Source: Roseomonas sp. E05
GTDB taxonomy: Bacteria; Pseudomonadota; Alphaproteobacteria; Acetobacterales; Acetobacteraceae
Direction: 5' to 3'
Length of the DNA: 64,000 bases
Assembly: GCF_030063475.1 (NCBI RefSeq)
Contig: NZ_JASIRT010000010.1
Span: 1-64,000, forward strand
Part shown: positions 1,393 through 58,884 of the stretch, piece by piece
How the letters are laid out: every line of letters starts with the position of its first letter
Position numbering within the stretch: position 1 is the first letter of the stretch
Notes under the pieces: model-generated
Databases searched by the model: none
What the model saw: the letters and a program-made list of their open reading frames with translations, nothing else
Told to the model about the DNA's origin: nothing
Position numbers and translations under genes: made by a program

Positions 1393-1438
1393 GCAGGAAC
1401 CTCAGGTTCCTGCCGGGGTGCAGGGGCAGAGCCCCTGC
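1393..1438. repeat. Paired palindromes of the ACCCCGCC-linked mosaic family
   Basis: Two perfect hairpins lie side by side. The first has GCAGGAACCT arms (1393-1402 and 1404-1413) around a single base. The second has GCAGGGGC/GCCCCTGC arms (1420-1427 and 1431-1438). Read on the minus strand the linker is ACCCCGGC, the same grammar as the loci near 18.7, 51.2 and 58.8 kb. It lies in the 452-base gap between the SnoaL-like gene and the methyltransferase gene. I see nothing else in that gap (1152-1603). Confidence 0.7.
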
Positions 1439-1603
1439 GCGGCGGTGGTATCAGCCTGAGGCGCGGGGCCTTCGCACAAGGGCGGCGGGCGGCGCCCAGC
1501 CCCTTGGCCCGCCGCCATGGCCGTCCCGCGCGGGGGATGGTATGAGGCGCCGGCATGATCGCGTCGGAATTCCCGCCCAGGCCGGACAGACAGGGGTGCC
1601 GCC

Positions 1604-2749
1604 GTGGGCCGCGCCTCCCGCCGGGCTGACGCGATGACGCGCGACAAGGGGTTCGAGATCTTCCTCGCGACGGTGCCGGGGCTGGAGCCGGTGCTGTGCG
1701 AGGAGGTGCGCGGCAAGGGCTTCAAGCGGCCGCGGGCGGTTCCCGGCGGCGTCGTCATCACCGGCGGCTGGCCGGAGGTTTGGCGCGCGAACCTGTGGGT
1801 CCGCGGCGCCGGGCGGGTGCTGGCGCGCATCGACGCCTTCCATGTGGTGCATCTGGCGCAGCTCGACAGCCGGGCGCGGCGGGTGCCCTGGGGCAGCGTG
1901 CTGCGGGCGGACGTGCCGTTCCGGGTGGAGGCCACCTGCGCGGGGTCGCGCATCTATCACTCCGGGGCGGCGGCGGAGCGGATCGAGGGCGCCATCCGGG
2001 AGACGCTGGGGGCGCCGCATTCGGCGGAGGCCGGGGTGGTCGTGCGGGCGCGGATCGAGCAGGACCTCTGCACGATCAGCGTCGATACCTCGGGCGAGCT
2101 GCTGCACAAGCGCGGGTACAAGGAGGCGGTCAACGCGGCGCCGATGCGGGAGACCATGGCGTCGCTGTTCCTGCGGCAATGCGGCTATGACGGCGGCGAG
2201 CCGGTGTTCGACCCGATGTGCGGGTCCGGCACCTTCGTCATCGAGGCGGCGGAGATCGCGGCGCGGCTCAATCCGGGGCGGGGGCGGCATTTCGCCTTCG
2301 AGCAGCTTGCGACCTTCGACGCGGAGGCCTGGGAGCGGATGCGGGCGGTGCGGAGCGGGCGGGTTCCGGCCGTACGGTTCCATGGCAGCGACCGGGATGC
2401 GGGGGCGGTCGCCATGAGTCGCGCGAATGCCGCGCGGGCGGGGGTCGGCGCGTGGACCGAGTTCCGGCAGGGCACGATCAGCGAGGCGGTGCCGCCGGAG
2501 GGGCCGCCGGGGCTGGTGATCGTCAATCCGCCCTATGGCACGCGCATCGGGGAGAGGGGGAAGCTCTCTGCCCTGTACCAGGCGCTCGGGCAGACGCTGA
2601 TGCGCCGTTTCGCGGGCTGGCGCGTCGGGATCATCGCGGCCGAGCCCAGGCTGGCGCAGGCGACGGGGTTGCCGTTCCTGCCGGCGGGCGCGCCGGTCCC
2701 GCATGGCGGGCTGCGGGTGTCGCTGTTCCAGACGGGGCCTCTGGCGTGA
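1604..2749 (+). CDS. THUMP-type class I SAM-dependent RNA methyltransferase
   Basis: The 381-residue protein matches the RlmL N-half/YcbY-type family that methylates guanine N2 in 23S rRNA. An N-terminal ferredoxin-like/THUMP region (about 15-170) is followed by a Rossmann methyltransferase domain. The SAM-binding motif DPMCGSGTF is at about 207-215, and the catalytic N6/N2-type motif NPPYGTR at about 308-314. GTG at 1604 is chosen because an AGGGG ribosome binding site precedes it by 7-8 bases. ATG at 1634 is an alternative 10 codons in and has no good site. The exact target base (m2G2445 in E. coli RlmL) is inferred from the family. The E. coli enzyme has a second fused RlmK domain that is absent here. 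Confidence 0.85.
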   Translation: MGRASRRADAMTRDKGFEIFLATVPGLEPVLCEEVRGKGFKRPRAVPGGVVITGGWPEVWRANLWVRGAGRVLARIDAFHVVHLAQLDSRARRVPWGSVLRADVPFRVEATCAGSRIYHSGAAAERIEGAIRETLGAPHSAEAGVVVRARIEQDLCTISVDTSGELLHKRGYKEAVNAAPMRETMASLFLRQCGYDGGEPVFDPMCGSGTFVIEAAEIAARLNPGRGRHFAFEQLATFDAEAWERMRAVRSGRVPAVRFHGSDRDAGAVAMSRANAARAGVGAWTEFRQGTISEAVPPEGPPGLVIVNPPYGTRIGERGKLSALYQALGQTLMRRFAGWRVGIIAAEPRLAQATGLPFLPAGAPVPHGGLRVSLFQTGPLA

Positions 2750-2998
2750 TGCCGCCGCAAGGTGTGGCGGTGGGGCGCCGGCGCCGGCAAGTTGTCTCGG
2801 GGGGCGGTGCCGGCCGTTGCGCCTGGGGGGGTGCCGGGAATGGGTGGCGGGCCTGCTGGCGGGCGGTCGCAGGCGCTGCTCACGGCCGGGCGGCGGGCCT
2901 CCGGGTACCGGCTGCTGGCCGGGCTTTCACCTTGGAGTGCTTAACGGGTGGCGTCTTCAGCCATTGAACCCCCCATTCAGCCCGCGTTAAGGTTGTTT

Positions 2999-3349
2999 AT
3001 GGATGAGAGCTGGACAACCCTAGACAGCCCGGACGATCTCCGCCTGGGTGAGTTGATGCCCGCATGGTTCAGCGGGCGGATGATGGCGGACGACTGGCGG
3101 TTCGGCCTGCTGCTTTCGACGGGGCAGGTCATGCTGATCCAGCGTATCGAGGCGGTGCATCTTTCCCCGCATGGGGTGGTGCTGATGGATGTGGATATGC
3201 TGCGGGAGGCCGAGGGCTTCGCCGCGCCGGGTGGGGTGCTGGTGGCGCCGACCGGGCGGGTGCGGGCGACGGTGAACCTGGCGCATATCGTCGCTGCCTT
3301 CGAGGTGGCGGATGCGCCGGGCGCGCCGGACGAGGACACGGGCTATTAG
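2999..3349 (+). CDS. Conserved hypothetical protein (116 aa)
   Basis: I do not recognise a family. The start ATG at 2999 follows AAGG with good spacing; a GTG at 2948 is in frame but has no site. The protein is soluble with no signal peptide or membrane segment. Its middle reads as alternating strands (WRFGLLLSTGQVMLIQRIEAV), suggesting a small beta-rich fold. The C-terminus is acidic. The stop codon TAG is the first three bases of a two-hairpin intergenic repeat, so the repeat appears to define the end of the protein. The 2750-2998 interval upstream is GC-rich and shows nothing I can support. Confidence 0.6.
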   Translation: MDESWTTLDSPDDLRLGELMPAWFSGRMMADDWRFGLLLSTGQVMLIQRIEAVHLSPHGVVLMDVDMLREAEGFAAPGGVLVAPTGRVRATVNLAHIVAAFEVADAPGAPDEDTGY

Positions 3350-3453: not shown

Positions 3454-3596
3454 CTGCCGGGAGGTGCGGGGGCGGCGCCCTGCCGGAGGGGGCCTGCATT
3501 TCGCGCTCCCCTGCAGCGCTCCAGGCGTGCCGGAAGACGCGGGAGGGGCGGGGCGCGGGGGCGCTGCGCCCTTCCGGATTCTTCCCTCCGGCGCGT

Positions 3597-4295: not shown

Positions 4296-4353
4296 GGCTG
4301 GTGCGTCCTCGGCGGGCGGGGGGCGACGGGGCAGGAGGGGAGGGCGGGGCGGT

Positions 4354-13014: not shown

Positions 13015-13041
13015 GACCGTCCGTTTCCTTTCCTGAAAAGA

Positions 13042-13063
13042 TCGGGGGAAGGAATTCCCCCGA
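13042..13063. repeat. Mosaic palindrome (EcoRI-type), single copy
   Basis: TCGGGGGAA (13042-13050) and TTCCCCCGA (13055-13063) flank a four-base centre. A pyrimidine-rich tail (ACCCCCCTTCTTTCTTCTG) follows on the plus strand. The same palindrome-plus-tail recurs near 18.7, 20.7, 35.7, 40.3 and 53.3 kb. It lies between two minus-strand genes. Confidence 0.75.
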
Positions 13064-13123
13064 ACCCCCCTTCTTTCTTCTGTCAGTCTGGCGCTGGGCG
13101 GGAGGTCAGCGCGGGAAAAGCGA

Positions 13124-16148: not shown

Positions 16149-18656
16149 ATGCGAAGCGACATCCGGCCCCTGCTCGTCGCGCTCGCGGCGGTCATCCTCC
16201 TGCCCTTCGTCCTGCCCTTCTTCGGGCTGACGCTGATCTCCGCGACCGATGTGGTGATCTACGCCATCGCGGTGATGGGGCTGAACATCCTGGTCGGGCA
16301 TACCGGCCTCGTCTCCTTCGGGCACGGCGCCTGGTTCGGCATCGGCGCCTATGCCGTGGGCATCATCCAGCGCGCCGTCTTCCCCGGCGACATGATCCTG
16401 CCGGCGATCGGCGCGGTGCTGGTGGTGGCGGCGCTCGCCGCCGTGGCGGGGGTGCTGATCCTGCGCCGCCGCGGCGTGTATTTCTCGCTGCTGACGCTGG
16501 CGCTGACGGCCATGCTCTACACCATCGCCTTCCGCTGGACGTCGCTGACCGGCGGCGAGAACGGCTTCGGCGGCATCACCCGCTACGGCTTCCTGCAGGA
16601 GACGCTGTCCTACTACATCCTGGCCGCCGCGATCGGGCTCGGCGTGGTCTTCCTGCTGTGGCGCTTCCATCATGCGCCGGCCGGCACCGTGCTGGTGGCG
16701 ATCCGCGAGAATGAGCAGCGCGCGCGCTTCATCGGCTATTCGACCGACCGCTACAAGCTGCTGGCCTTCGTGCTTTCCGCCAGCGTCACCGGCCTGGCCG
16801 GCGTGCTCTCGGCCTACAACCACCGCTTCGCCTCGGCCGAGCCGATCGCCATCGCCTTCTCGGGCGAGCTGCTGGCGATGGTGGTGATCGGCGGCATGCG
16901 CAGCTTCCTCGGGCCGGCGCTCGGGGCGCTGTTCTACATCCTGTTCCGCGAGTTCCTCTCGATCTACACGCCGAACTGGCTGCTGTTCTTCGGGCTGCTC
17001 TTCGTCGGCTTCATCGTCTTCTCGCCGGACGGGCTGGTGGGCGTCGGGCAACGGCTGCTGGCGCCCTTCCGCAAGAAGCAGGTGGAGGAGGCGGCGATGT
17101 CGGCGCGCCGGGCGACGACGCCAGCGCCGGTGCCGCCGCGCTTCATCCGCCCGGGCACGGCGAGCGGGCCGGTCCTGGCGGCGGAGGGGCTGCGCAAGAG
17201 CTTCGGGCGCATCCAGGCCGTGCAGGGCGTGAGCTTCGCCGTCGGCGACCGCACGCTGCACGCGCTGATCGGGCCGAACGGCGCAGGCAAGACCAGTGCC
17301 TTCAACCTGCTCTCCGGCATGTTCCCGCCCGATGCGGGGCGCGTGATGCTGGATGGCAAGGACGCGACGGGCTTCTCGCCGGAGCGCATCACCCGGGCGG
17401 GCATCGGGCGCTCCTTCCAGATCACCAACCTCTTCCCGGACCTTTCCATCGCCGAGAACCTGCGGCTGGCGGTCCAGGCGCGGCATCCCGCCCGCTTCGG
17501 CATCTGGCGCAGCGCCGGCAGCTACGCCGACATGGCCGACGACACCGAGGTGCTGGTGCGCTGGATGGGCCTTTCCGGCATGGAGAAGGCGGAGGCGGGG
17601 GCGCTCTCCTATGGCGGGCAGCGGCTGGTGGACATGGCCGTGGCGGTCGCCACAAGGCCGCGCGTGCTGCTGCTGGACGAGCCGCTGGCGGGGCTGGCCA
17701 CCGCCGAGCGGACGCGCGTGGGGGAGCTGATCAAGCGTGTCTCGGCCGACATTCCGGTGCTGCTGGTGGAGCATGACATCGACCGCGTCTTCGCCCTCGC
17801 CGACCGGGTGACGGTGATGAACGACGGCGAGGTTCTGGTGGACGGCAGTGTCGAGGATGCGCGCACCGATCCGCGCGTGCAGGAGGTCTATCTCGGCTCG
17901 GGGGCAAGCGCGATCGCCGCCAAGCCGCGCGCCTCGGCGGTGGTGGAGACGCCGCTGCTGAAGCTGGAGGGGATCAACACCTTCTATGGCAAGAGCCATA
18001 TCCTGCAGGGCGTGACCATGCAGGTGCGGCAGGGCGAGATCACCGCGCTGCTCGGGCGCAACGGCGCGGGCAAGTCCACGCTGCTGAAGTCCATCATGGG
18101 CATCACCCACCCGGCCAGCGGCTCGATGCAGCTGGCCGGCGAGGAGGTGGCGGGGCTGGCTTCCGACCAGATCGCGCGCCGAGGCGTCGGCTTCGCGCCG
18201 CAGGGGCGCGGGCTGTTCGCGGGCATGAGCGTGGCGGAGAACCTGGCGCTCGGCCGCCTGAAGCGGCTGACCGGCGCGGGGCAGCACTGGGACGAGGAGA
18301 AGGTGCTGGCGTTCTTCCCGCGCCTGAAGCAGCGCTGGCGCACGCCGGCGGATGCGCTCTCGGGCGGCGAGCAGCAGATGGTGGCGGTGGCGCGCGCGCT
18401 CTCGGGCGACACGCGGCTGTTGCTGCTGGACGAGCCCTTCGAAGGACTTTCGCCGGCGGTGACCGAGGAACTGTTCGAGGCCTTCGACAAGCTGCGGCAG
18501 GAGATCTCGATCATCATCGTGGACCACAACCTCGACCTCGCCCTGGCCCTTTCGGACAGCACCGTGGCGCTGGAGCGCGGGGCGGTGGCCTGGACCGGGG
18601 AATCGCGGGTGCTGCGGGAGGATCTGGAACTGCGGCGGAAGGTGCTGTGGCTTTGA
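16149..18656 (+). CDS. LivM-LivG-LivF fusion: permease plus two ATPase domains
   Basis: One 835-codon frame encodes three normally separate LIV components. Residues 1-310 are a LivM permease (about nine TM segments, with GLNILVGHTGLVSFGHGAWF). A linker with Pro/Ala-rich sequence follows. Residues about 330-575 are a LivG ATPase with Walker A GPNGAGKT (about 376) and the LivG-type signature SYGGQ. Residues about 600-835 are a LivF ATPase with Walker A GRNGAGKST (about 637), signature LSGGEQQ and Walker B LLLLDEPF. The ATG at 17097 (codon 317) is preceded by GGAGGAGG at seven-base spacing, so a separate LivG-LivF product could also be made. LivM-LivG fusions are common; all three together are less so. 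Start at 16149 is five bases after livH. Confidence 0.92.
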   Translation: MRSDIRPLLVALAAVILLPFVLPFFGLTLISATDVVIYAIAVMGLNILVGHTGLVSFGHGAWFGIGAYAVGIIQRAVFPGDMILPAIGAVLVVAALAAVAGVLILRRRGVYFSLLTLALTAMLYTIAFRWTSLTGGENGFGGITRYGFLQETLSYYILAAAIGLGVVFLLWRFHHAPAGTVLVAIRENEQRARFIGYSTDRYKLLAFVLSASVTGLAGVLSAYNHRFASAEPIAIAFSGELLAMVVIGGMRSFLGPALGALFYILFREFLSIYTPNWLLFFGLLFVGFIVFSPDGLVGVGQRLLAPFRKKQVEEAAMSARRATTPAPVPPRFIRPGTASGPVLAAEGLRKSFGRIQAVQGVSFAVGDRTLHALIGPNGAGKTSAFNLLSGMFPPDAGRVMLDGKDATGFSPERITRAGIGRSFQITNLFPDLSIAENLRLAVQARHPARFGIWRSAGSYADMADDTEVLVRWMGLSGMEKAEAGALSYGGQRLVDMAVAVATRPRVLLLDEPLAGLATAERTRVGELIKRVSADIPVLLVEHDIDRVFALADRVTVMNDGEVLVDGSVEDARTDPRVQEVYLGSGASAIAAKPRASAVVETPLLKLEGINTFYGKSHILQGVTMQVRQGEITALLGRNGAGKSTLLKSIMGITHPASGSMQLAGEEVAGLASDQIARRGVGFAPQGRGLFAGMSVAENLALGRLKRLTGAGQHWDEEKVLAFFPRLKQRWRTPADALSGGEQQMVAVARALSGDTRLLLLDEPFEGLSPAVTEELFEAFDKLRQEISIIIVDHNLDLALALSDSTVALERGAVAWTGESRVLREDLELRRKVLWL
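17084..17099 (+). promoter_or_regulatory. Internal ribosome binding site in the LivMGF fusion
   Basis: GGAGGAGG followed by CGGCG and an in-frame ATG (17097-17099) sits at the boundary between permease and first ATPase domain. It would allow initiation of a LivG-LivF polypeptide and may be the relic of a formerly separate livG start. Confidence 0.45.
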
Positions 18657-18669
18657 GCGAAGGAAAAGG

Positions 18670-18822
18670 CTGGGGGAAGGAATTCCCCCAGGCCCCCATC
18701 TATTTCTGCCGGTTTCGGCAGCGTGTGCTGCGGCGTGGCTCACCCAGGCCGTCGGTGGCGGGGTCCGGGGTGACCCTGTCACCCCGGCGGGAGGGGGCTG
18801 GGGAGGGCGGCGCCCTCCCCAG
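18670..18822. repeat. Head-to-head pair of mosaic palindromes
   Basis: The left half is a palindrome with arms CTGGGGGAA/TTCCCCCAG (18670-18691) and a pyrimidine-rich tail on the plus strand. The right half reads in the opposite direction: CCGGGGTGA/TCACCCCGG (18765-18787) and a perfect 12-base stem CTGGGGAGGGCG/CGCCCTCCCCAG around one base (18798-18822). It fills the space between the LivMGF fusion and the next gene. Confidence 0.8.
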
Positions 18823-20712: not shown

Positions 20713-20743
20713 GGCGCGGCAAGGGGGCAGGAACAAGACGGGG

Positions 20744-20770
20744 GTTCGGGGGAAGTCCCTTCCCCCGAAC
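20744..20770 (-). terminator. Mosaic palindrome acting as a probable terminator between convergent genes
   Basis: GTTCGGGGGAAG (20744-20755) and CTTCCCCCGAAC (20759-20770) form a perfect 12-base stem with a three-base loop between BKACE (+) and the GH13 gene (-). On the minus strand it is followed by the family tail ACCCCCGTCTTGTTCCTG. Function as terminator is inferred from position. Confidence 0.65.
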
Positions 20771-20785
20771 TGCTCTGCTTTCCGT

Positions 20786-22510: not shown

Positions 22511-22527
22511 GGGGAAAAGAGTTTCCC
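22511..22527. repeat. Degenerate mosaic palindrome
   Basis: A weak GGGAAA/TTTCCC stem followed by AGGCCCGCATTTTCCCTC resembles the palindrome-plus-pyrimidine tail of the mosaic family. It lies in the divergent region between the GH13 and kelch genes (22436-22640). Confidence 0.45.
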
Positions 22528-35651: not shown

Positions 35652-35666
35652 GCAGGCAGGGCTGAA

Positions 35667-35872
35667 GCAAGGTCGGGGGAATGAATTCCCCCGACCTTGC
35701 TTCTTTTTTCTGTTGGGTTTCGGTTCCGCCTGGGGCCATGTCCGTCCCGGGCGGCCTTGCGGGTTGCAGTCTCCGGGGCTGCTTCAGCCCCGGCGTGAGC
35801 GCCTGCGGTCAGCGCGACAAAACGGATAGAAAAGAAGAAGAGGGGGCCGGGGGAGAATTCATTCTCCCCCGG
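35667..35872. repeat. Composite mosaic element between convergent genes, with terminators at both ends
   Basis: At the left a perfect 16-base stem (35667-35682 and 35685-35700, arm GCAAGGTCGGGGGAAT) is followed by TTCTTTTTTCTG, an intrinsic-terminator layout for ilvE. At the right a 12-base stem (arms CCGGGGGAGAAT, 35847-35858, and ATTCTCCCCCGG, 35861-35872), read on the minus strand, is followed by a C/T-rich tail facing the deoR-like gene. A hairpin CCGGGGCTG/CAGCCCCGG (35773-35793) lies between them. The right-end palindrome is identical to that at 40304-40329. Confidence 0.85.
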
Positions 35873-35876
35873 TTCC

Positions 35877-36635
35877 TCAGCAGGCCACCACCACGCGGAT
35901 ACCGGCGGCGGCGAAGGGGGCGAGCTGCGCCTCGGTCGCCCCGGCATCGGTGACCAGCGTGTAGGGGCGCGCCGGCCGCGCCCAGTTGGCCTGCGAGGCG
36001 CGGCCCAGCTTGGAGGCGTCGGCCAGCACGAAGACCTCGGCGCCCTGCTCCATCATCAGGCGCTTCAGCGCGATCTGCGGCAGGGTGGCCTCGCACAGGC
36101 CGCGCTCGGCCACCACGCCGTCGGCGCCCATGAAGGCCTTGTCAGCGGTCATGCAGCGCAGGGCCTGCTCGGCGAGCGGGCCGGTGGTGCTCATGCTGAT
36201 GGGGCGCAGCTCGCCGCCCAGCAGCACCAGCTCGATGCCGGGGGCGCCGGCCAGCGTCGCGATCAGCGGCAGGTTGCTGGTGATCACACGGTGCTGGCCG
36301 CCACGCAGCAGCGGGCCGAGGGCGGCGACGGTGGAGCCGCCGTCCAGGATCAGCGTGTCCTCCGCGTGGATCAGCGCGGCGGCGGCGCGGGCGATGGCCG
36401 CCTTGGCCGCGCCGTGCCGCTGGGTGCGGGCGTCCAGGCTTTCCTCGGGCTCCGGATGGGCCAGCAGGGCGCCGCCGTAGGTGCGGGTGATGGCCCGCTC
36501 GCGCGAGAGCGCCTGCAGGTCGCGCCGGATGGTGGAGGCGGAGACGCCGAAGCGGGCGGCCAGCGCGTCCACATCCGCCGCGCCGCCGGCGAGCGCCTCC
36601 AGCATGGCGTCGCGGCGGCTCCGGCTCTGCCGCAT
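35877..36635 (-). CDS. DeoR-family transcriptional regulator
   Basis: The 252-residue repressor has an N-terminal DeoR helix-turn-helix (DALAARFGVSASTIRRDLQAL, about 22-42) and a sugar-phosphate-binding DeoR C-domain (ILDGGSTVAALGPLL, VITSNLPLIATL, KAFMGADGV). The effector is expected to be a phosphorylated intermediate, consistent with the kinase encoded in the same operon. It is the last gene, eight bases after pdxA2. It probably controls the promoter upstream of the permease gene near 40.0 kb. Confidence 0.92.
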   Translation of the reverse strand: MRQSRSRRDAMLEALAGGAADVDALAARFGVSASTIRRDLQALSRERAITRTYGGALLAHPEPEESLDARTQRHGAAKAAIARAAAALIHAEDTLILDGGSTVAALGPLLRGGQHRVITSNLPLIATLAGAPGIELVLLGGELRPISMSTTGPLAEQALRCMTADKAFMGADGVVAERGLCEATLPQIALKRLMMEQGAEVFVLADASKLGRASQANWARPARPYTLVTDAGATEAQLAPFAAAGIRVVVAC

Positions 36636-36643
36636 GGGGCGGC

Positions 36644-37654
36644 TCAGCCGCGCCTGGGGGCGAGGTCGGCGGCCTGCTTCAGCGCCTCGATCAGGCTGCC
36701 GTCGTCGGCGATGCCCTTGCCGGCGATGTCGAAGGCGGTGCCATGGTCCACTGAGGTGCGGATCACCGGCAGGCCGACGGTGATGTTCACGCCGGCCTCC
36801 AGCCCCATCACCTTCACCGGGCCGTGGCCCTGGTCGTGGTACATGGCCACCACCAGGTCGAAGTCGCCGCGGGCGGCGCGGAAGAAGAGGGTGTCGGCGG
36901 GGAGGGGGCCTTCCACCTTCCAGCCCTTCGCGCGGCAGGCCTGCACGGCGGGAATGATCTTCTCCTCCTCCTCGCCCTGGCCGAAGAGGCCGTTCTCGCC
37001 GGCATGCGGGTTGATGCCACAGACGCCGATGCGCGGATCGGCGATGCCGGATTTCTGCAGCGTGGCGTGGCCGCGGGCGATGACGCGCTCCACCAGCCCC
37101 GGCTCGATCTTCCGGATGGCGTCCATCAGGCCGATATGCGTGGTGACGTGGATGACGCGCAGCTTGGGCGCCACCAGCATCATCGAAACCTCGGGCGTGC
37201 CGGTCAGGTGGGCCAGCAACTCGGTATGGCCGGGATACTTGTGGCCGGCGGCGTGCAGCGCCTCCTTGGAGAGCGGCGCGGTACAGATGGCGTCGGCCTC
37301 GCCGGCCTGGACGAGCTGCGTCGCGCGCTCGATGAAGCGGTAGGCGCCCTCGCCAGAGACCGGGGAGAGCTTGCCCCAGGGATGGCCGGCGGGGATCAGG
37401 CCGAGGTCGATGCAGTCCACCGTGCCGAGGGTGAAAGCCGCCTCGGCGGGGGTGGCGCGGGCGGCCACCGCCAGCTTGCCGCCGGTGATGGCGCCGGCCT
37501 CGCGCAGGCGGTTGGCGTCGCCGACCACCAGCGGGCGGCAGAGGTCGTAGACCTCCGGGCGGGCCAGGGCCTTCATGATGATCTCGGGGCCGATGCCGGA
37601 GGCGTCGCCCATGGTGATGGCCACGATGGGGCGATGGTCGGGGGTGGCGGTCAT
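36644..37654 (-). CDS. PdxA-family 4-phospho-acid-sugar dehydrogenase (PdxA2-like)
   Basis: The 336-residue enzyme is homologous to 4-hydroxythreonine-4-phosphate dehydrogenase. The Zn ligands are His in YPGHTELL, His in NPHAGENG and His in MYHDQGHG. Next to a DUF1537 kinase, PdxA-like proteins act as PdxA2, oxidising 4-phospho-D-threonate or D-erythronate and decarboxylating to dihydroxyacetone phosphate. That is the assignment here, rather than vitamin B6 synthesis. It overlaps the kinase gene by four bases. Confidence 0.9.
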   Translation of the reverse strand: MTATPDHRPIVAITMGDASGIGPEIIMKALARPEVYDLCRPLVVGDANRLREAGAITGGKLAVAARATPAEAAFTLGTVDCIDLGLIPAGHPWGKLSPVSGEGAYRFIERATQLVQAGEADAICTAPLSKEALHAAGHKYPGHTELLAHLTGTPEVSMMLVAPKLRVIHVTTHIGLMDAIRKIEPGLVERVIARGHATLQKSGIADPRIGVCGINPHAGENGLFGQGEEEEKIIPAVQACRAKGWKVEGPLPADTLFFRAARGDFDLVVAMYHDQGHGPVKVMGLEAGVNITVGLPVIRTSVDHGTAFDIAGKGIADDGSLIEALKQAADLAPRRG

Positions 37655-38925
37655 GGGGTGGCTCCAGGAAGCGGGTGCGGGGCGGGCATCGCGTGCAGGC
37701 GGGCCAGGCTGCGCAGCAGGGTGCCCTCGTCACCGAAGGCGCCGGCCTTGGTCATCACGGGCAGGCACAGCGCACCCTGGGTGAGGCCGAGCGGCACGCC
37801 GGGCTCGACCTCCTCGATCAGGCGGATGCCGTGCACGCCGAGATGGGTCAGCAGGGCGCAGGCGGTTTCGCCGCCGGTGGCGAAGAGGCCGCCCATGCGC
37901 CCGGCGGCGGGGGCGAGCAGGGCAGCCAGCCGTCCGGCCAGGGCGGCGCCCTGGGCAAGGTCGGCGGCGGGGTCGTCGGCGATCTCGGCCAGCGTGTCCC
38001 GCCCGGCGGCGAGGGAGGCGGCGATCTCGGCGGCGAGCGACGCCCAGCGCGGGTCGGCCGGGCCAGCGCGCAGCAACTCGGGCGGGATCAGGAAGGGGTG
38101 GGCCGCGCCCTCGGCCACCAGGCGGGCGGCGGCGGCACGGGAGGCCTCGGCGACGCTGCCGACCACGACCAGCACGCCGCCGGCCGCGGCGGGGAGGGCG
38201 GGGGCGGCGTGCTCCGGGGCGGCTTCGGGCAGGGCGGCGGCCAGGGCGGCGGCGATGCCGCCGGAGCCCACCCAGAAGACACGGCCGGCGAGCGGCAGGC
38301 TGGCGCGGGCCAGCAGGGCGAGGTCCTCGGCCGTGGTGGCGTCGCAGACCAGGGCCTCGGTGCCATCGGTCAGGGCGGCGAGGGCGGCACCCACCGCCGG
38401 CTCGCCGGCGCGCAGGGCCTCCAGCGGCAGCAGGCGGGTGGCGAGGCCGGCTTCCGCCAGCACCGTGGGCAGGTGGGCGGAGGCGTAGCTGTGGTCGCGC
38501 GCCCAGAGGGGAGTGGCCTCCAGTGGCGTGCCGTTCAGGTGGATGCGGCCGCCCTCGGTGGTGCGGCCGGTGGCCGGGAAGGCGGGGGCGACGATGGCCA
38601 GCGCCGGCTGGCCGGCCGCGCGCAAGGCGCGGCAGGTGGCGGCCAGCTCCGCCGCCGGCTGGCCGCGGAGGGTGGAGTCGATCTTCTTGATCAGGCCCTG
38701 GCCGGGCCGGTGCCGCGCCCGCAGCAGGGCGACATGGCGCGCCGCGGCGGCCTCGGGCGGCAGGCGGCGGCTGTCGGCGTCGATCGCCAGCACCGCGCCC
38801 GCTTCCTCCGCCATCGGCGCGCCGTGCCAGCCGACCGAGGCCGAGAGCCCGCGCCGCGCGAAGGCGATGCCGCAATCGGCGGCGCCGGTCAGGTCATCGG
38901 CCAGGATCAGCCAGCGGGAGGACAT
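37651..38925 (-). CDS. Four-carbon acid sugar kinase (DUF1537 family)
   Basis: The 424-residue kinase has the N-terminal substrate-binding motif LILADDLTGAADCGIAF (Asp-Asp dyad). A C-terminal nucleotide-binding domain includes GGETACALL. The family (DtnK/DenK/OtnK) phosphorylates threonate, erythronate or 3-oxo-tetronate at O4. Here the neighbour is a PdxA2-type dehydrogenase, so threonate or D-erythronate is most likely. The oxidative OtnI/OtnC partners are absent. Ten bases downstream of the permease gene. Confidence 0.9.
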   Translation of the reverse strand: MSSRWLILADDLTGAADCGIAFARRGLSASVGWHGAPMAEEAGAVLAIDADSRRLPPEAAAARHVALLRARHRPGQGLIKKIDSTLRGQPAAELAATCRALRAAGQPALAIVAPAFPATGRTTEGGRIHLNGTPLEATPLWARDHSYASAHLPTVLAEAGLATRLLPLEALRAGEPAVGAALAALTDGTEALVCDATTAEDLALLARASLPLAGRVFWVGSGGIAAALAAALPEAAPEHAAPALPAAAGGVLVVVGSVAEASRAAAARLVAEGAAHPFLIPPELLRAGPADPRWASLAAEIAASLAAGRDTLAEIADDPAADLAQGAALAGRLAALLAPAAGRMGGLFATGGETACALLTHLGVHGIRLIEEVEPGVPLGLTQGALCLPVMTKAGAFGDEGTLLRSLARLHAMPAPHPLPGATP

Positions 38926-38935
38926 AGCGGACCTT

Positions 38936-39952
38936 TCAGCCCTGCCGCGCGGGGGCGGTGGCCGGATGGGGGGACGCGGGCACCGGCGCGGGCTGGGGAG
39001 CAGGGCCGCCGGTGCGGCGGGACACCCAGGCGGTCAGCAGCGGCACCAGCACCGTGGTGACGATGACGGCGGCGGCGACGAGGATGGTGGCCGGGGCGGC
39101 GGCGGCCGCATAGGCCGGGTTGGCGGCCGCCACGATGGCCGGCACCGCCGCCGCATTGCCCGCGGTGGAGGCCGCGGCGACGCCGGCGACGCCGCTGCCG
39201 CCGATGGCACGGTCGGCCAGGAAGAGCGGAATGCCGGTGACCACCACCACCGCCACGCCGAGGCCGAGGCCCAGCAGGCCGGCCTGCCACACCTTGCTGA
39301 GATCCAGCCCGCTGCCCAGCGCGAAGGCGAAGAAGGGGATCATCACCGGGATGGCGCGGCTGAGGAAGGCGCGCATCTCGCGGTCCAGGTTGCCGAGGAG
39401 CATGCCCACCAGCAGCGGCAGGATGGAGCCCACCAGCGTCGGCCAGGGGAAGGCCGAGAGGCCGGCCACGCCCAGCGTCACCATGGTCAGGAAGGGGCCG
39501 GATTCCAGCGTCATCACGGTATAGGCGCCGACGTCCCGCGCGTCGCCGTACTGGCCCATCAGCGCCATGTAGAGGCCGCCATTGGTGTCGTTCATCGCGG
39601 CGACGATGGCCAGGGTGGAAAGGCCGGCGAAGGCGCCGGCGGTGACCGGGGCCTCGCCCAGGATCTGGCCGAAGACGACGCCCAGCAGGATCGCCATGCC
39701 GATCTTCACGCCGAACAGCGTGCCGCCCTTCTTCAGGATGTAGGGCGTCGCGCGGAAATCGATGCTGGCGCCCATGCAGACATAGAACACCGCCAGGATG
39801 GTCAGCGCCCCGCTGAACAGCGCGCCGGTGAAGGAGCCGAAGAACTTCGGGGTGTCCGGGAAGAAGGTGGCGATGAGCGCGCCCAGGGCCAGGGGCACGA
39901 CCATCATCCCGCCCGGCACCCGCTCGATGGCGCGCTTGATGGGGAGCTGCAT
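38936..39952 (-). CDS. kdgT: 2-keto-3-deoxygluconate permease family transporter (KdgT)
   Basis: The 338-residue inner-membrane protein has about ten TM segments and the KdgT family phrases [17 protein letters not shown] and [18 protein letters not shown]. The known substrate is 2-keto-3-deoxygluconate by proton symport. Beside four-carbon acid sugar genes it more likely imports threonate/erythronate-type acids. ATG at 39952 follows GAGGAAG. It is the first gene of the permease-kinase-dehydrogenase-regulator operon. The C-terminus carries a Pro/Ala tail. Confidence 0.9.
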
Positions 39953-40026
39953 GAAGGCTTCCTCGCTTCGCACCGGGGGGTGCGGGTCTTTCGGACTGCG
40001 CGGAATGCGCAGATTTCGGCGCTTAA

Positions 40027-40068
40027 TTCGCGCAAATACGCCGGAAAGCAATCGCAATTTTGCGCGAA
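40027..40068. promoter_or_regulatory. Inverted-repeat operator upstream of the kdgT operon
   Basis: TTCGCGCAAA (40027-40036) and TTTGCGCGAA (40059-40068) are perfect inverted repeats 22 bases apart in the A/T-richer leader of kdgT. This fits a DeoR-type dimer-of-dimers site; the regulator is encoded by the last gene of the operon. Confidence 0.55.
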
Positions 40069-40087
40069 ATGCGCGTGTTTCAGGCAT

Positions 40088-40329
40088 GTGGGAGGGGCGC
40101 CGCCCCTCCCACGCCCTCCCTGCTGGGGGAACTGAGTTCCCCCAGGCCCCCGCCTTCCGTGCGGCCCCGCAGAAAGCACCAGGGGGCCGGACGCAGCGCG
40201 CCGGCCCCCTTGGTGCTTCCTGTCGCAGTCGCCGGGGCGGTTTCGGCCCTGGCGCGCGCGCTTCATCCGCGCTGGAAAACCGGCAGAGAAAAGAAGAGGG
40301 GGTCCGGGGGAGAATTCATTCTCCCCCGG
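40088..40329. repeat. Composite mosaic element, 242 bp, five hairpins
   Basis: In order: a perfect 12-base stem GTGGGAGGGGCG (40088-40112); an 11-base stem CTGGGGGAACT (40123-40145); a long central hairpin with arms AAGCACCA-GGGGGCCGG (40174-40190) and its complement (40201-40218, one bulge); an imperfect CGCCGGGGC/GCCCTGGCG stem (about 40230-40254); and, inverted, a 12-base stem CCGGGGGAGAAT (40304-40329). With the kdgT leader it accounts for the whole gap 39953-40336. Confidence 0.85.
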
Positions 40330-40336
40330 CCTTGGC

Positions 40337-41233
40337 CTACTTCGCTTCCCGCGCCGCGATGGCCCGTGCCCGGGCGAGCAGCGCCTCGGCGCGGCGGACG
40401 ATCGGGATGTCGATCATCTTGCCGTCGAGCGCGAAGGAGCCGCGCCCCTGGGCGGCGGCTTCGCGGTCGGCGGTGACGATGCGCTCGGCCTTTGCCACCG
40501 CCTCCGGCGAGGGGCTGAAGCCGGCGTTCAGCGCGGGCACCTGCGCGGGGTGGATGGCCGAGGCGCCGACAAAGCCGAAGGCGGCGGAGCGGCGCACCAC
40601 CTCGGTATAGGCGGCGATGTCGGAATAGTCGGCCACGGTGCTGATGGTGCCGAGCGGCATCAGGCCGGCGGCGGTGGCGGCCTGCAGGATCTGCTGCTTG
40701 GGCATCAGCAGCACGTCGGGGGTGGGCTCGCCGCCGATGGCGGTGGCGTAGTCCTCGGCGCCGAGCGAGAGGCCCACGGTGCGCGGCGTGGCGCGGGCGA
40801 TGGCATGGGCCTGGGCGAGCGGGCCGGGGGCCTCGATCAGCGCGACGAAACGGATGCCGCCTTCGGGCAGGCCGCGCTTCTGTTCGAGGCGGGCGACCAG
40901 CTCGTCCAGCAGGCGGAGGTGGTCGGGGCCTTCGACCTTGGTGACCATGATGGCGGCGACGCCGGGCAGCACGGCGGCCTCCAGGTCGCGCACCGCGTCC
41001 TCCAGCGGCTGGTTGATGCGCACCAGGATGTCCGAGCGGGCCTCGCGGCGCAGGCGCTCGACGGCGGCCTCCACCTTGCGCCGGGCCTCGGGCTTGTCGG
41101 CTGGGGCGATGCTGTCCTCCAGGTCGAGTTGGATGGCATCGGCGCCGCGCTCGCCGGCCTTGGCCAGGAAGCGCTCGACATTGACGGGGACGAAAAGGCC
41201 GGAACGCCAGACGGGGTGCGGGGCGGGATTCAT
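40337..41233 (-). CDS. HpcH/HpaI-type CoA ester lyase (CitE-like)
   Basis: The 298-residue TIM-barrel lyase is of the CitE/malyl-CoA lyase group. Mg2+ ligands are Glu in ALIEAPG and Asp in LGAEDYA. The start SGLFVPVNVERFLAKA and the Q-L-D-L-E-D-S block bind the CoA ester. It would cleave a 3-hydroxyacyl-CoA such as malyl- or citramalyl-CoA to acetyl-CoA or propionyl-CoA plus a 2-keto acid. It overlaps the CoA-transferase gene by four bases, so the transferase product is its probable substrate. Confidence 0.92.
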   Translation of the reverse strand: MNPAPHPVWRSGLFVPVNVERFLAKAGERGADAIQLDLEDSIAPADKPEARRKVEAAVERLRREARSDILVRINQPLEDAVRDLEAAVLPGVAAIMVTKVEGPDHLRLLDELVARLEQKRGLPEGGIRFVALIEAPGPLAQAHAIARATPRTVGLSLGAEDYATAIGGEPTPDVLLMPKQQILQAATAAGLMPLGTISTVADYSDIAAYTEVVRRSAAFGFVGASAIHPAQVPALNAGFSPSPEAVAKAERIVTADREAAAQGRGSFALDGKMIDIPIVRRAEALLARARAIAAREAK

Positions 41234-51203: not shown

Positions 51204-51260
51204 CCAGGAGGGGCGCCGCCCCTCCTGGACCACCCCGCCGGGGGGACCGTGTCCCCCCGG
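51204..51260. repeat. Paired mosaic palindromes between the TAXI and TRAP genes
   Basis: A perfect 12-base stem CCAGGAGGGGCG (51204-51215 and 51217-51228) and a 10-base stem CCGGGGGGAC (51238-51247 and 51251-51260) are joined by the ACCACCCCG linker and followed by GGACCCCGCC. The orientation follows the upstream gene. Confidence 0.8.
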
Positions 51261-53258: not shown

Positions 53259-53292
53259 AGGGCCGTGCCGCGATCCGGCCGGCGGGCAAAGC

Positions 53293-53481
53293 CGGGGGAG
53301 AATGAATTCTCCCCCGCACCCCCTCATCTTTTTCCTGCCAGTTCCGCAGCGTGGGTGGAGCGCGCCCGCGCCGGGGCTGTTTCAGCCCCGGCGACCATGG
53401 CCCGTGAGCCGTCCTGGTCACGGGCCTGACCCGAACTGACAGAGAAAAGATGGGGGTCCGGGGGAATTCCTTCCCCCGGAC
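53293..53481. repeat. Composite mosaic element between convergent genes
   Basis: Left stem CGGGGGAGAAT/ATTCTCCCCCG (53293-53316) with the plus-strand tail ACCCCCTCATCTTTTTCCTG; central stems CGCCGGGGCTG/CAGCCCCGGCG (53369-53393) and GGCCCGTGA/TCACGGGCC (about 53398-53425); right stem GTCCGGGGGAA/TTCCCCCGGAC (53456-53481) with the same tail inverted. It sits between the TRAP gene (+) and the PrpD gene (-), each end facing its gene as a terminator would. Confidence 0.85.
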
Positions 53482-53494
53482 TTTTCCTGTGGCG

Positions 53495-56925: not shown

Positions 56926-57740
56926 GCGCGGCCGGCCTTTTTCGCTTCGCTGCGGGCGAGGAAGGCGGCGACCGAGTCCAGGTGCTCCTGGGTGCTGTAG
57001 CAGATCGCCTGCGCCTGGCTGCCCATGGCGAAGACCTGTTCCACCGAAAGCTCGAAGCTCTGGTCGAGGATGGACTTGGCCAGCGCCAGCGAGGCGGGGG
57101 CGCCCTGGCTCAGTTCGGCGGCCCAGGCGCGGGCATCGCCGAGCAGGGCTTCGTCGCTGGTGACGCGGTCGGCGACGCCGAGCTTCAGCGCCTCCTCCGG
57201 CTTCAGCGTGCGGCCGGTGAAGATCAGCTCCTTGGCGCGCACGAGGCCGACGCGGCGCGGCAGGAAATACATGCCGCCGCCATCCGGGATCAGGCCGCGC
57301 TGCACATAGCTCATGGCGAAGCGCGCCGAGGCGCCGGCCATGACGAAGTCGCAGCACAGCGCGACGTCGCAGCCGAGGCCGGTGGCGGCGCCGTTCACCG
57401 CGGCGATGGTGGGCTTGGGCAAAGCGTGCAGCATGGCGATGGCGTGGTGCGTGCGCTGCTGCCGGCGCCAGCCGTTCAGCGCCACCTGGCCATGCGGCGC
57501 GGCGAGGCGCTCCTTCATGCCGCGCACGTCGCCGCCGGCGCAGAAGCCTTTTCCCGCACCGGTGACGACGAGGGCGCGGATGGCGTCGTCGCGCGAGACA
57601 CGGTCGAGGGCGGCCATCAGGTCGCCGCGCATGGCGTCGTCGATGGCGTTGCGGCGCTCGGGGCGGTTCAGCGTCAGGGTGGCGACGGGGCCGTCCACGG
57701 TCAGCAGGATGGTGTCGCTCGCCGGCTGGTCGGGGGTCAT
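56922..57740 (-). CDS. Enoyl-CoA hydratase/isomerase family protein
   Basis: The 272-residue crotonase-fold protein has the oxyanion-hole motifs GFCAGGDVRGM (about 66-76) and NGAATGLGCDVALCCDF (about 115-131), and the second catalytic region GLIPDGGGMYFLPRRVG. Asp replaces the usual Glu there, as in many isomerase-like members. It acts on an acyl-CoA made by the ligase encoded downstream. Overlaps both neighbours by ATGA. Confidence 0.93.
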   Translation of the reverse strand: MTPDQPASDTILLTVDGPVATLTLNRPERRNAIDDAMRGDLMAALDRVSRDDAIRALVVTGAGKGFCAGGDVRGMKERLAAPHGQVALNGWRRQQRTHHAIAMLHALPKPTIAAVNGAATGLGCDVALCCDFVMAGASARFAMSYVQRGLIPDGGGMYFLPRRVGLVRAKELIFTGRTLKPEEALKLGVADRVTSDEALLGDARAWAAELSQGAPASLALAKSILDQSFELSVEQVFAMGSQAQAICYSTQEHLDSVAAFLARSEAKKAGRA

Positions 57741-58735
57741 GCGTGGGGGTCCTGTGCGGTTGTGGCGCCGGCGGCCGCGTTCAGCGGGTTGGGCAGCGCG
57801 GCGCCGGCATTCCAGGCGCGCAGGCAGGCCGTGGCGCCCTCGAAATAGGCGCGGTAGTTGCGCGCCGAGACGTAGCCGAGATGCGGCGTCAGCAGGGTGT
57901 TGGGGGCTGCCAGCAGCGGGTGGCCGGGCGGCAGCGGCTCCTCCTCGAAGACGTCGATGGCGGCGCCGCCGAGCCGGCCCTCGTGCAGCGCGGCGAGCAG
58001 CGCCGCCTCATCCACCAGGGCGCCGCGGGCGGTGTTCACCAGCAGCGCGCCGGGCCGCATCGCCGCCAGCTCCGCCGCGCCGACGATACCCCGCGTGGTG
58101 GGGCCGAGGCCGAGATGCAGGCTGACGATGTCCGAGCGGGCGAAGAGGTCCTGCTTGGAGACCAGCTCGGCGCCGGCGGCGGCAGCACGCTCAAGCGTCA
58201 TGTTGGGGCTCCAGGCCAGCACCTTCATGCCGAAGGCCAGCGCGATGGCCGTCACCCGCACGCCGATGCGGCCGAGGCCGGCGACGCCGAGGGTGGCGCC
58301 TTCCAGCTCAAGCCCTGGCGGCTGCGCCTGCCAGCGGCCCTGGCGCAGCGCGGCCTCCTGCGCGGGGATGCGGCGGGCGAGGCCGAGGATCAGGCCCCAG
58401 GCCAGTTCCACCGTCGGCGCGGCCGCGGAGGGCGTGCCGCAGACGGCGATGCCGCGCGCCTGGCAGGCGGCGAGGTCCAGCACGCGGTTGCGCATGCCCG
58501 TCGTCACCATCAGGCGCAGGTCGGGCAGCGCCTCGACTAGCTCGGCGGGGAAGGGGCTGCGCTCGCGGATCAGCACCACGGCGTCGAAGCCGCGCAGGCG
58601 CTCCGTCAGGGCGGAGCCGGTGACGTGGTCGGTGAAGACCTCGACCGGCAGGCCGGACCAGTCGGCGGCGGCGCGGGCGGCATCGCCGAAATCGTCCAGC
58701 AGGGCGATGCGGCGGAGGGGTGGGCGGGCGGTCAT
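57737..58735 (-). CDS. D-2-hydroxyacid dehydrogenase family protein
   Basis: The 332-residue protein has the NAD motif GVAGLGRIGVRV (about 149-160). The catalytic Arg is in VNTARGALVDE, Glu in VFEEEPLPPGHPL and His in LTPHLGYVS. It is the first gene of the four-gene cluster, overlapping the hydratase by four bases. It likely interconverts a 2-hydroxy and 2-keto acid entering the CoA-linked route. Confidence 0.93.
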   Translation of the reverse strand: MTARPPLRRIALLDDFGDAARAAADWSGLPVEVFTDHVTGSALTERLRGFDAVVLIRERSPFPAELVEALPDLRLMVTTGMRNRVLDLAACQARGIAVCGTPSAAAPTVELAWGLILGLARRIPAQEAALRQGRWQAQPPGLELEGATLGVAGLGRIGVRVTAIALAFGMKVLAWSPNMTLERAAAAGAELVSKQDLFARSDIVSLHLGLGPTTRGIVGAAELAAMRPGALLVNTARGALVDEAALLAALHEGRLGGAAIDVFEEEPLPPGHPLLAAPNTLLTPHLGYVSARNYRAYFEGATACLRAWNAGAALPNPLNAAAGATTAQDPHA

Positions 58736-58756
58736 GCGCGGTACTCCGGGGACGGG

Positions 58757-58884
58757 CCAGGGGCGCCGCCCCTGGACCCCGCCGGGGTGACAGTGTCACC
58801 CCGGACCCCGCCGACGGATGCAGGGGTCCGGGGAGGCTCAGCCTCCCCGGCGGGGAGGTCCAGGAGGGGCAGCGCCCCGCCTGG
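58757..58884. repeat. Head-to-head pair of mosaic palindromes
   Basis: Left half, plus-oriented: CCAGGGGCG (58757-58775) and CCGGGGTGACA/TGTCACCCCGG (58782-58804) joined by ACCCCG. Right half, reading oppositely: CCGGGGAGGCT/AGCCTCCCCGG (58828-58850) and GGGGC/GCCCC within CCAG...CTGG (about 58860-58884). It occupies the gap between the hydroxyacid dehydrogenase and Bug genes. Confidence 0.8.

What the first reader, a model, noticed from the sequence alone, without database searches (positions are those of the whole stretch)
1393..58884. A mosaic family of perfect GC-rich palindromes with a conserved ACCCC-rich linker
At about ten intergenic loci (1393-1438, 13042-13063, 18670-18822, 20744-20770, 22511-22527, 35667-35872, 40088-40329, 51204-51260, 53293-53481, 58757-58884) I see near-perfect stems of 9-16 bp. 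Where two stems lie side by side they are joined by ACCCCGCC-like linkers, and the centre palindrome is often followed by a pyrimidine-rich tail. Stem sequences change at matched positions between loci (for example TCGGGGG/CCCCCGA against CTGGGGG/CCCCCAG), so pairing rather than sequence is conserved. All copies are outside genes, many directly after a stop codon. This looks like a dispersed REP-like or non-autonomous mobile family that has been adopted as terminators.
Basis: partly seen in the sequence, partly recalled or inferred. Interest (0 to 1): 0.7.

Follow-up and report, generated by a model that had tools for sequence, protein, structure and literature searches.

The report
Triplex-like paired hairpins behind genes
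A bacterium related to Roseomonas carries many short, near-identical DNA hairpins placed mostly just behind its genes, and the flank of each hairpin tends to have changed in step with its stem, as if the DNA were kept able to fold into a three-stranded structure.

Summary
The palindromes are real and not chance. The window belongs to a Pseudoroseomonas-type genome with at least 150 copies of the main module ("A"): a GGGGGAAKGAATTCCCCC-type hairpin, about 3 nt, then CCCCCWTCTTTTTTCTG. It usually stands about 10 nt behind a stop codon, is nearly absent from divergent gaps, and about half the copies form facing pairs with quantised spacing. Copies are gained, lost or swapped between relatives. 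Fifteen of 16 congeners carry it. RAYT genes are essentially absent (PF01797 in 1 of 17 genomes, partial), so the proposed RAYT link fails.

The new point: the "ACCCC linker" is not a fixed sequence. It tends to be the mirror image of the hairpin's 3' arm and to follow it when it changes (GGAGGGG/CCTCCCC or CCACCCC, GGGGAGG/CCCCTCC, GAGAGGGG/CTCTCCCC, GGGGGAG/CCCCCTC). In class-B hairpins 40 of 142 readings fit, against 12.6 +- 2.8 with shuffled flanks; the matching direct-repeat control shows no excess. Such mirror symmetry is the signature of an intrastrand triple helix, as in PIT/BoxC/TM-ECO repeats, here with the third strand at the other end.

Best reading: a REP-like, triplex-capable repeat family adopted as 3'-end boundaries. 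Position, pairing and mirror covariation are shown. Triplex formation, termination and the means of spread are inferred.

The parts
1393..1438 (.). class-B pair: GCAGGAACC/GGTTCCTGC hairpin and GCAGGGGC/GCCCCTGC hairpin joined by CGGGGT (ACCCCG on the - strand); in a gap called divergent, so an exception to the stop-codon rule
13032..13091 (+). module A: hairpin 13042-13063 plus mirror tract CCCCCCTT and T-rich tail; nearest relative G012 has a second, facing module here that is missing from the window
18660..18719 (+). module A behind the stop of 16149-18656: hairpin 18670-18691, spacer, CCCCCAT; orthologous copy in G012 has loop G->T and tail A->T
18765..18787 (.). class-B hairpin P2 (CCGGGGTGAC/GTCACCCCGG)
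18789..18822 (-). class-B hairpin P1 (GGGGAGGG stem, 18798-18822) with mirror tract CCCCTCCC (18789-18796, read on the - strand)
20718..20778 (-). module A variant, hairpin 20744-20770, between convergent stops; the relative G012 has a 2.4-kb gap without an A palindrome here instead
35664..35703 (+). 19-bp hairpin with the A-family centre directly followed by TTTTTT: looks like an ordinary intrinsic terminator, no C-tract
35773..35793 (.). central hairpin CCGGGGCTG/CAGCCCCGG of the long composite
35819..35882 (-). facing module A (GGGGGAGAA stem; C-run then TCTTC on the - strand)
40088..40120 (+). class-B P1 hairpin (GGGAGGGGC stem, 40088-40112) with tract CCCTCCC 40114-40120
40123..40145 (+). 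A/B intermediate hairpin CTGGGGGAAC/GTTCCCCCAG followed by GCCCCCGCC
40276..40339 (-). facing module A (GGGGGAGAA stem, CCCCCTCTTC tract)
51204..51236 (+). class-B P1 hairpin (GGAGGGG stem, 51204-51228) with third-strand tract CCACCCC 51230-51236
51238..51260 (+). class-B P2 hairpin CCGGGGGGAC/GTCCCCCCGG followed by ACCCCGCC
53282..53345 (+). left module A of a composite between convergent genes: hairpin 53293-53316, tract CCCCCTC 53319-53325
53369..53393 (.). central hairpin CGCCGGGGCTG/CAGCCCCGGCG of the composite
53430..53489 (-). right, facing module A: hairpin 53456-53481, followed outward (+ strand) by TTTTCC
58757..58884 (.). class-B array: P1 58757-58775 with ACCCC, P2-type hairpins 58782-58804 and 58828-58850, inverted imperfect P1 58860-58884 with GGGGAGG (58852-58858, = CCTCCCC on the - strand)

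Best explanation
This is a dispersed, non-autonomous, REP-like family of triplex-capable palindromes adopted as 3'-end boundary elements. Each unit is a purine arm, a loop, a pyrimidine arm, 3-5 nt, and then a pyrimidine tract that in many copies is the mirror image of the pyrimidine arm. The other strand therefore reads third strand - spacer - purine arm - loop - pyrimidine arm and could fold into an intrastrand triplex (G over G-C, A or T over A-T). About half of the A-modules seen are in recognised facing pairs, which together form a long inverted repeat, mostly behind stop codons. Proposed action: (1) SHOWN: pairing and mirror relations co-vary, position is at 3' ends, copies turn over between species. 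(2) INFERRED: when the duplex opens (supercoiling behind RNA polymerase, replication) the strand folds into hairpin or triplex, and the RNA copy forms a hairpin with a U tract. Together these stop or insulate converging transcription. (3) INFERRED: copies spread as facing pairs by an unlinked enzyme or by recombination between copies, not by a RAYT.
For: Mirror covariation: 40 of 142 class-B readings fit, shuffled flanks 12.6 +- 2.8 (max 23 of 2000); direct-repeat control 12 against 12.3; one per distinct arm 9.7 against 2.2 +- 1.3. Per hairpin, 28 of 52 have a full fit in one reading. Observed value above every one of 200 shuffles in four genomes taken alone: own 28 against 7.1, G012 8 against 1.4, G014 9 against 1.6, G007 6 against 2.1. 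With the register set on C positions only, the flank base opposite A-T pairs is T 42, A 6, G 7, C 3 of 58. Class A: stem run equals tail run in 0.80 against 0.58 expected (own plus relatives, n=133); stem AG goes with tail TC in 17 of 17 own and 3 of 5 other modules. Orthologous gap C1:153059: own GGGGAGG/CCCCTCC, G014 GGAGGGG/CCACCCC, G016 GGAGGGG/CCTCCCC. Position: 57 of 84 modules behind a stop on the same strand, 5-70 nt, medians 10-10.5; module-bearing gaps 51 of 185 convergent, 63 of 670 tandem, 4 of 307 divergent. Pairs: 72 facing, none tandem or outward within 260 nt, spacing clusters near 97, 160-166 and 207-221. Turnover. Triplex folding of a comparable E. coli motif in vitro: PMC4666352.
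Against: No structure or activity was measured. The E. coli PIT/BoxC elements showed no terminator activity and no in vivo footprint (PMC4666352). Within one genome the A copies are too alike to test (own 74 fits against 66.4 +- 3.2 shuffled, max 77), and subfamily descent explains part of the A correlations. 102 of 142 class-B readings do not fit; in G016, G003, G009, G001, G002 and G008 the class-B excess does not beat the best shuffle. In the first, free-run form of the test direct repeats also exceeded shuffles, less than mirror ones (3.07 against 2.80 +- 0.07; mirror 3.44 against 2.95 +- 0.07). Own A modules with 4-G stems have 5 or more C in the tail in 7 of 9. G016 has an AGAA stem with a CCCCTTTT tail, and the G003 hairpin in the C1:153059 gap has no mirror tract. 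No transposase or target-site duplication was found. Synteny loss is not enriched at A sites (9 of 28 against 14 of 55). In class B, T leads A opposite A-T pairs 42 to 6, so purine and pyrimidine motifs are not told apart there.
Confidence: 0.5

Rival explanations
1. Ordinary bidirectional intrinsic terminators (hairpin plus T tract) that share sequence because they are copied or gene-converted; the mirror tract is a side effect of C-rich composition and subfamily descent.
For: Position behind stops and avoidance of divergent gaps; T-rich flanks on both sides; 35664-35703 looks like a plain terminator; loop and tail subtypes are linked.
Against: Mirror fit far exceeds shuffled pyrimidine-bearing flanks and survives reduction to one copy per distinct arm, while direct repeats show no excess in the same test. 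On the tail side the T tract is separated from the stem by the C tract.
Confidence: 0.22
2. Selfish MITE-like element mobilised by an unlinked transposase that recognises the paired ends (perhaps as single-stranded structure); location behind genes merely reflects removal of harmful insertions.
For: Same ends with species-specific cores and quantised length; presence/absence at orthologous gaps, e.g. C10:129973 empty in G012, C1:121675 nearly empty in G003; facing pairs only within 260 nt.
Against: No transposase recognised between ends (4 long facing pairs listed; only the G012 ORF was searched further), no target duplication recognised by eye, RAYT family absent; placement near 10 nt from stops is tighter than avoidance of genes needs.
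Confidence: 0.2
3. RNA-level element: the transcript 3' end folds into a hairpin with a pyrimidine-motif RNA triplex or a long duplex between the facing halves, protecting mRNA.
For: The transcript of the upstream gene has the order purine-pyrimidine-Hoogsteen, a motif type that can form in RNA according to PMC4666352; the whole 53285-53490 composite folds as RNA at -129 kcal/mol, z -9.3; T leads A opposite A-T pairs in class B.
Against: Tails of partner modules are no more alike than shuffled ones (12.17 against 11.88 +- 0.28), so tail-tail pairing is not visibly selected; A is common opposite the first A-T pair in class A (53 of 89 own AA-stem modules), which the pyrimidine motif does not allow; C+ triplets favour acid.
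Confidence: 0.12
4. REP/BIME family mobilised by a RAYT.
For: Palindromic, intergenic, paired, high copy.
Against: PF01797 absent from 16 of 17 genus genomes, one partial match (own); GTAG beside 12 of 306 modules and CGTC beside none.
Confidence: 0.03

Closest known systems
PIT / BoxC / TM-ECO intrastrand triplex repeats (Holder et al. 2015, PMC4666352; the earlier Hoyne and Maher work seen only through it)
   Same: Intergenic, dispersed, hairpin plus third strand with a short second loop (3 nt there, mostly 3 nt in class A), G-rich purine-motif potential, sometimes in inverted pairs, patchy among close relatives.
   Different: Third strand lies 5' of the purine arm (RH-R-Y) rather than 3' (Y-R-RH); different sequence; placement behind stop codons and in facing pairs of set spacing; T-rich tails; third strand co-varies with the stem.
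REP/BIME and CGTC-tagged palindromes (PMC3733652)
   Same: Short palindromes, high copy, mostly downstream of genes, dimers; CGTC families also lack a dedicated transposase.
   Different: No GTAG or CGTC tag as a rule, no RAYT, long conserved pyrimidine tail with mirror tract.
MITEs (definition recalled and as in PMC4666352)
   Same: Conserved inverted ends, variable core, roughly 120-240 bp, non-coding.
   Different: No matching transposase or target duplication found; ends are themselves hairpins with a mirror tract.
Rhizobial RIME/ABC intergenic mosaic elements (recalled; papers seen only in a search listing)
   Same: Mosaic of palindromes in alphaproteobacterial gaps.
   Different: Sequences not compared here.
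Intrinsic terminators (recalled)
   Same: Hairpin plus T tract behind stops.
   Different: Shared sequence across very many loci, C tract between hairpin and T tract on the tail side, facing pairs.

Membership tests
PIT/BoxC-type intrastrand triplex repeats | hairpin arm with homopurine/homopyrimidine core of 6 or more and a third tract fitting triplet rules, short loops | tested here: met
   met by many but not all copies
PIT/BoxC-type intrastrand triplex repeats | TM-ECO pattern and order Y-R-RH | tested here: not met
   Order is RH-R-Y on the purine strand and the sequence differs, by reading; so kin in kind, not a TM-ECO member
PIT/BoxC-type intrastrand triplex repeats | folds into a triplex as isolated strand | not testable with these tools
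   needs CD, NMR or footprinting
REP (GTAG/CGTC superfamilies) | GTAG or CGTC tag at the foot of the palindrome | tested here: not met
   within 8 nt: GTAG at 12 of 306, CGTC at 0 of 306 modules, its complement GACG at 1
REP (GTAG/CGTC superfamilies) | RAYT in the genome (GTAG REPs) | tested here: not met
   absent from 16 of 17 genus genomes, one partial match
MITE | terminal inverted repeats with related transposase and target duplication | tested here: inconclusive
   inverted ends yes; no transposase recognised between 4 long pairs; no duplication recognised
Intrinsic terminator | hairpin followed by T tract behind stop codons | tested here: met
   sequence and position only
Intrinsic terminator | terminates transcription | not testable with these tools
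   needs Term-seq or reporter
Any Rfam family | match at gathering score | tested here: not met
   (E up to 1): two matches in the window, both below their gathering scores

The most novel reading that the evidence does not exclude
Natural selection maintains DNA intrastrand triplexes in living bacteria: the third strand of these stop-codon elements has changed together with its stem many times, and purine-motif triplets (which do not form in RNA) are the unit of selection, acting as transcription or replication roadblocks at gene ends.
Probability: 0.35. Interest if true: 0.82.

Novelty: new variant of a known kind. Interest (0 to 1): 0.6.

Why it matters
Whether natural triplex-forming repeats fold or do anything in cells is open: the E. 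coli motif folds in vitro, but no in vivo footprint or terminator activity was found (PMC4666352). Here the comparative record offers something that paper, as far as I read it, does not report: a third strand that follows its stem through different sequences, at a consistent genomic position. That gives a natural mutation series for testing triplex function, and a candidate bidirectional gene-boundary element. If the mirror tract proves dispensable, the family is still a large set of genus-specific terminator-like repeats, not found described in the searches made, with visible gain and loss.

Tried and rejected
Rfam scan of the window: nothing above a gathering score. RAYT: rejected. Tail-tail pairing of facing modules: not supported, partners no more alike than shuffled (the 76 pairs used there include 4 spurious zero-distance pairs, the same palindrome read twice, so 72 are real). 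Cargo ORF between facing modules in G012 as a family transposase: rejected, no Pfam match and found only in G012 among 17 genomes; the ORFs of the other three long pairs were only translated. Elements as general rearrangement hot spots: not supported overall (9 of 28 against 14 of 55, p = 0.61); length changes over 300 nt were 5 of 24 against 1 of 42 among syntenic gaps (one-sided p about 0.02 worked by hand, post hoc). Orthologous empty sites: looked at by eye for target duplications, none clear. GAGAGGGG-type unit outside the genus: none in 384 other class genomes, which included no congener.

The mirror test was run in several forms, all reported: free runs, where direct repeats also showed a smaller excess, anchored register, a register that missed outer T bases and gave 20 full fits of 163 against 5.6 +- 2.1, corrected register 28 of 103 against 11.6, max 20, per genome, C-only register, restricted shuffle with direct-repeat control. 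Orthologous copies in own and G012 were not removed, except through the one-per-arm test. Class A alone is not significant within a genome. Named loci were chosen by a pattern demanding 5 C in stem and tail; and the A part carry that bias, and removes it (n=74: 0.78 equal against 0.47).

The C2 and C3 stretches, the regions, and several were chosen near known hits, so densities are not unbiased; one search uses only C1 (1-400,000) and C10.

Full report
WHAT IS THERE. The window (71.6% GC) holds 33 perfect hairpins of 9 bp or more, against 8.95 +- 3.5 in shuffles, and 12 of 11 bp or more, against 0.5. Module A is AAAAGRYY-GGGGGAA(K)GAATTCCCCC-RRA-CCCCC(W)TCTTTTTTCTGTCAGTT, with a longer-stem form GGGGGAGAATGAATTCTCCCCC (62 copies aligned). 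Class B is a chain of GC-rich hairpins of the type CCAGGGGC-GCC-GCCCCTGG (P1) and CCGGGGTGAC-AGT-GTCACCCCGG (P2) joined by ACCCCGCC-like linkers. Rfam has no match above a gathering score.

COPY NUMBER AND RANGE. The strict palindrome CGGGGGAN{2,14}TCCCCCG has 204 sites in the 5.73-Mb genome and the reversed control pattern 1. A covariance model of module A gives 150 hits, the scoring cap. In 37 other genomes, 15 of 16 of the same genus, 1 of 5 from other genera of the family (G019, 47 hits, best E 2.5e-12, against about 1e-20 within the genus) and 1 of 16 from elsewhere in the class (one hit, E = 2e-4) are positive. A strict hairpin-plus-tail pattern occurs in 15 of 17 genus genomes (own included), from 0 to 110 copies, with no control hit. 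The 80 listed named hits all belong to Pseudoroseomonas, Roseomonas sp. or unnamed Acetobacteraceae (80 of 97 stretches listed, scan stopped at its limit). So the family is nearly genus-restricted with large copy differences; G008 has none by either test.

POSITION. Among 84 oriented modules in the first own-genome sample, 57 stand behind a stop codon of the same strand with the tail pointing away (5-70 nt, medians 10-10.5), 19 have a gene start behind them and face a convergent stop (13 of these are by eye one half of a pair), and 8 overlap a called gene. In the larger own sample 69 of 109 modules, and over twelve genomes 109 of 178, have a stop within 45 nt. Gaps of 60 nt or more on C1 and C10 that hold class A: convergent 24 of 53, tandem 21 of 176, divergent 1 of 73; GC-rich non-A hairpins: 12, 32 and 1. 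Over twelve genomes, module-bearing gaps are 51 of 185, 63 of 670 and 4 of 307 (three of the twelve have no module; many stretches were chosen near hits). This is a 3'-end distribution, from either function or purging. Gene calls are from my own codon-usage script; Pfam supports nine of ten frames tested, and the tenth was the losing alternative frame opposite an RlmL-like gene.

PAIRS. Modules close together face each other: 72 facing pairs and no tandem or outward pair within 260 nt (after dropping 4 zero-distance artefacts); these pairs hold about half of the modules in that set. Spacing is quantised, about 97-101 nt in this genome, about 160-173 with a central CCGGGGCTG/CAGCCCCGG-like hairpin, and about 203-228 in other species, whose cores are alike within a species but differ between species while the ends stay the same (by eye). 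The tails of partners are no more alike than shuffled, so the two halves look like independent units rather than arms kept to pair.

TURNOVER. The relative G012 (85-94% identical in aligned blocks) is syntenic over most of the window. Some elements are shared with changes, some replaced by another subtype, and some absent: C10:129973 has a composite where G012 has adjoining start and stop codons; C1:121675 has 150 nt where G003 has 7. At 53258 G012 carries a 240-codon ORF between two facing modules; it has no Pfam match and no relative in the other 16 genus genomes. Synteny loss as such is not enriched at A sites.

STEM COVARIATION. The two outer pairs of the module-A stem are Watson-Crick in 83 and 89 of 97 own modules (of 106; those with unequal arm runs left out), against 53.4 +- 4.3 and 47.9 +- 4.2 shuffled, through C-G, T-A and in other species A-T and G-C.

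THE MIRROR TRACT. Behind the 3' arm, after 3-5 nt, comes a tract that in many copies repeats the arm backwards. In class B, where stems vary, the tract varies with them: GGAGGGG with CCACCCC or CCTCCCC, GGGAGGG with CCCTCCC or CCCACCC, GGGGAGG with CCCCTCC, GGGGAGGG with CCCCTCCC, GAGAGGGG with CTCTCCCC, GAGGGGG with CTCCCCC, GAAGGGG with CTTCCCC. Of 142 class-B readings that have an internal A-T pair and a pyrimidine tract, 40 fit, against 12.6 +- 2.8 (max 23) when flanks are shuffled among these same readings; direct repeats show 12 against 12.3; one copy per distinct arm gives 9.7 against 2.2 +- 1.3. The other 102 readings do not fit. Each hairpin is read on both sides; per hairpin, 28 of 52 had a full fit. 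Taken per genome, the counts are 28 against 7.1 (own), 8 against 1.4 (G012), 9 against 1.6 (G014), 2 against 0.9 (G016), 3 against 0.5 (G003), 6 against 2.1 (G007), 1 against 0.2 (G009), 0 against 0 (G001), 2 against 0.3 (G002) and 1 against 0.2 (G008); own, G012, G014 and G007 exceed every one of 200 shuffles, the others do not; two genomes had too few hairpins. With the register fixed on C positions only, the flank base opposite an A-T pair is T 42, A 6, G 7, C 3, where shuffles give T 0.38, G 0.42, C 0.15, A 0.05. In the first, free-run test the direct-repeat measure was also above shuffles, though less. In class A the stem G-run equals the tail C-run in 80% against 58% expected (own and relatives, n=133) and 78% against 47% in other species after removing scan-selected modules (n=74), and an AG at that place in the stem goes with TC in the tail in 17 of 17 own and 3 of 5 other modules. 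Own modules with 4-G stems break the run rule (7 of 9 have a longer tail run). Subfamily descent accounts for part of class A, and within one genome class A shows no excess. At the orthologous gap C1:153059 own, G014 and G016 carry different stems or tracts, each pair matching; G003 has a hairpin there without a mirror tract.

WHAT THE MIRROR MEANS. Antiparallel pairing does not demand a mirror repeat, and polymerase errors at palindromes yield inverted or direct copies, not mirror ones (established knowledge). Base triplets do: C and T over the purine arm on one strand (pyrimidine motif), or G over G-C and A or T over A-T on the other (purine motif). The first base after the C-run in class A, opposite the first A-T pair, is A in 53 and T in 35 of 89 own AA-stem modules, which the purine motif allows and the pyrimidine motif does not; PMC4666352 states that purine-motif triplexes do not form in RNA. 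That favours DNA as the folded molecule, but in class B T clearly leads (42 to 6), so the motif is not settled.

MECHANISM. Shown: hairpin and mirror covariation, 3'-end placement, facing pairs, turnover. Inferred: that an opened strand folds into hairpin or triplex; that the far module, whose outward side tends to read hairpin then T-rich (at least 4 T in 10 nt in 70 of 106 own modules), ends transcripts; that spread is by an unlinked enzyme or recombination.

COMPARISON. Holder et al. 2015 (PMC4666352; abstract, introduction part 1 and sections 15-18 read, passages elsewhere) describe TM-ECO/BoxC/PIT: order Y-R-RH, 3-nt second loop, 3610 copies in 262 genomes, five inverted pairs in E. coli K-12, no set distance to genes, no terminator activity in earlier work, folding in vitro but no in vivo footprint. 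Roseomonas and Acetobacter do not occur in its main text. PMC3733652 (abstract and passages seen) defines REPs by GTAG or CGTC tags; ours lack both as a rule. My searches (the last showed 12 of 558) list no description of this family in the open-access library searched; subscription journals are not covered, and the ITxF database could not be queried.

Noticed in passing
L216:6149-6871 (G012:C76): A 240-codon ORF of unknown family sits between two facing A-modules at the site where the window has only the composite 53293-53481; not found in the other 16 genus genomes.
   Followed up: yes
L034:4090-4133 (C1:364.1k) and G000:C10:123327-123407: Another palindrome, GGTCAAACCTATAGGTTTGACC (one mismatch in the second copy), stands where the G-tract next to an A hairpin is expected at two loci; C10:129973 has an ATCGAACG/CGTTCGAT hairpin in a similar place.
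   Followed up: no
module A loop and tail, e.g. window 18670 against G012: Loop G goes with tail A and loop T with tail T (30:5 and 7:18), and both changed together at the orthologous 18670 site; no pairing or triplet rule that I know explains it.
   Followed up: partly
window 35664-40336: A block of four called genes (one DeoR-like) bounded by elements on both sides; G012 has about 1.3 kb of other DNA there that did not align.
   Followed up: partly
G008 (same genus): One congener listed as 100% complete has no A-module by model or strict pattern; useful as a natural null.
   Followed up: no
composite cores in P. deserti and Roseomonas sp. 18066 loci (e.g. L126:164-380): About 207-bp composites with a core shared by eye within these species between the same ends; possibly a recent amplification.
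   Followed up: no
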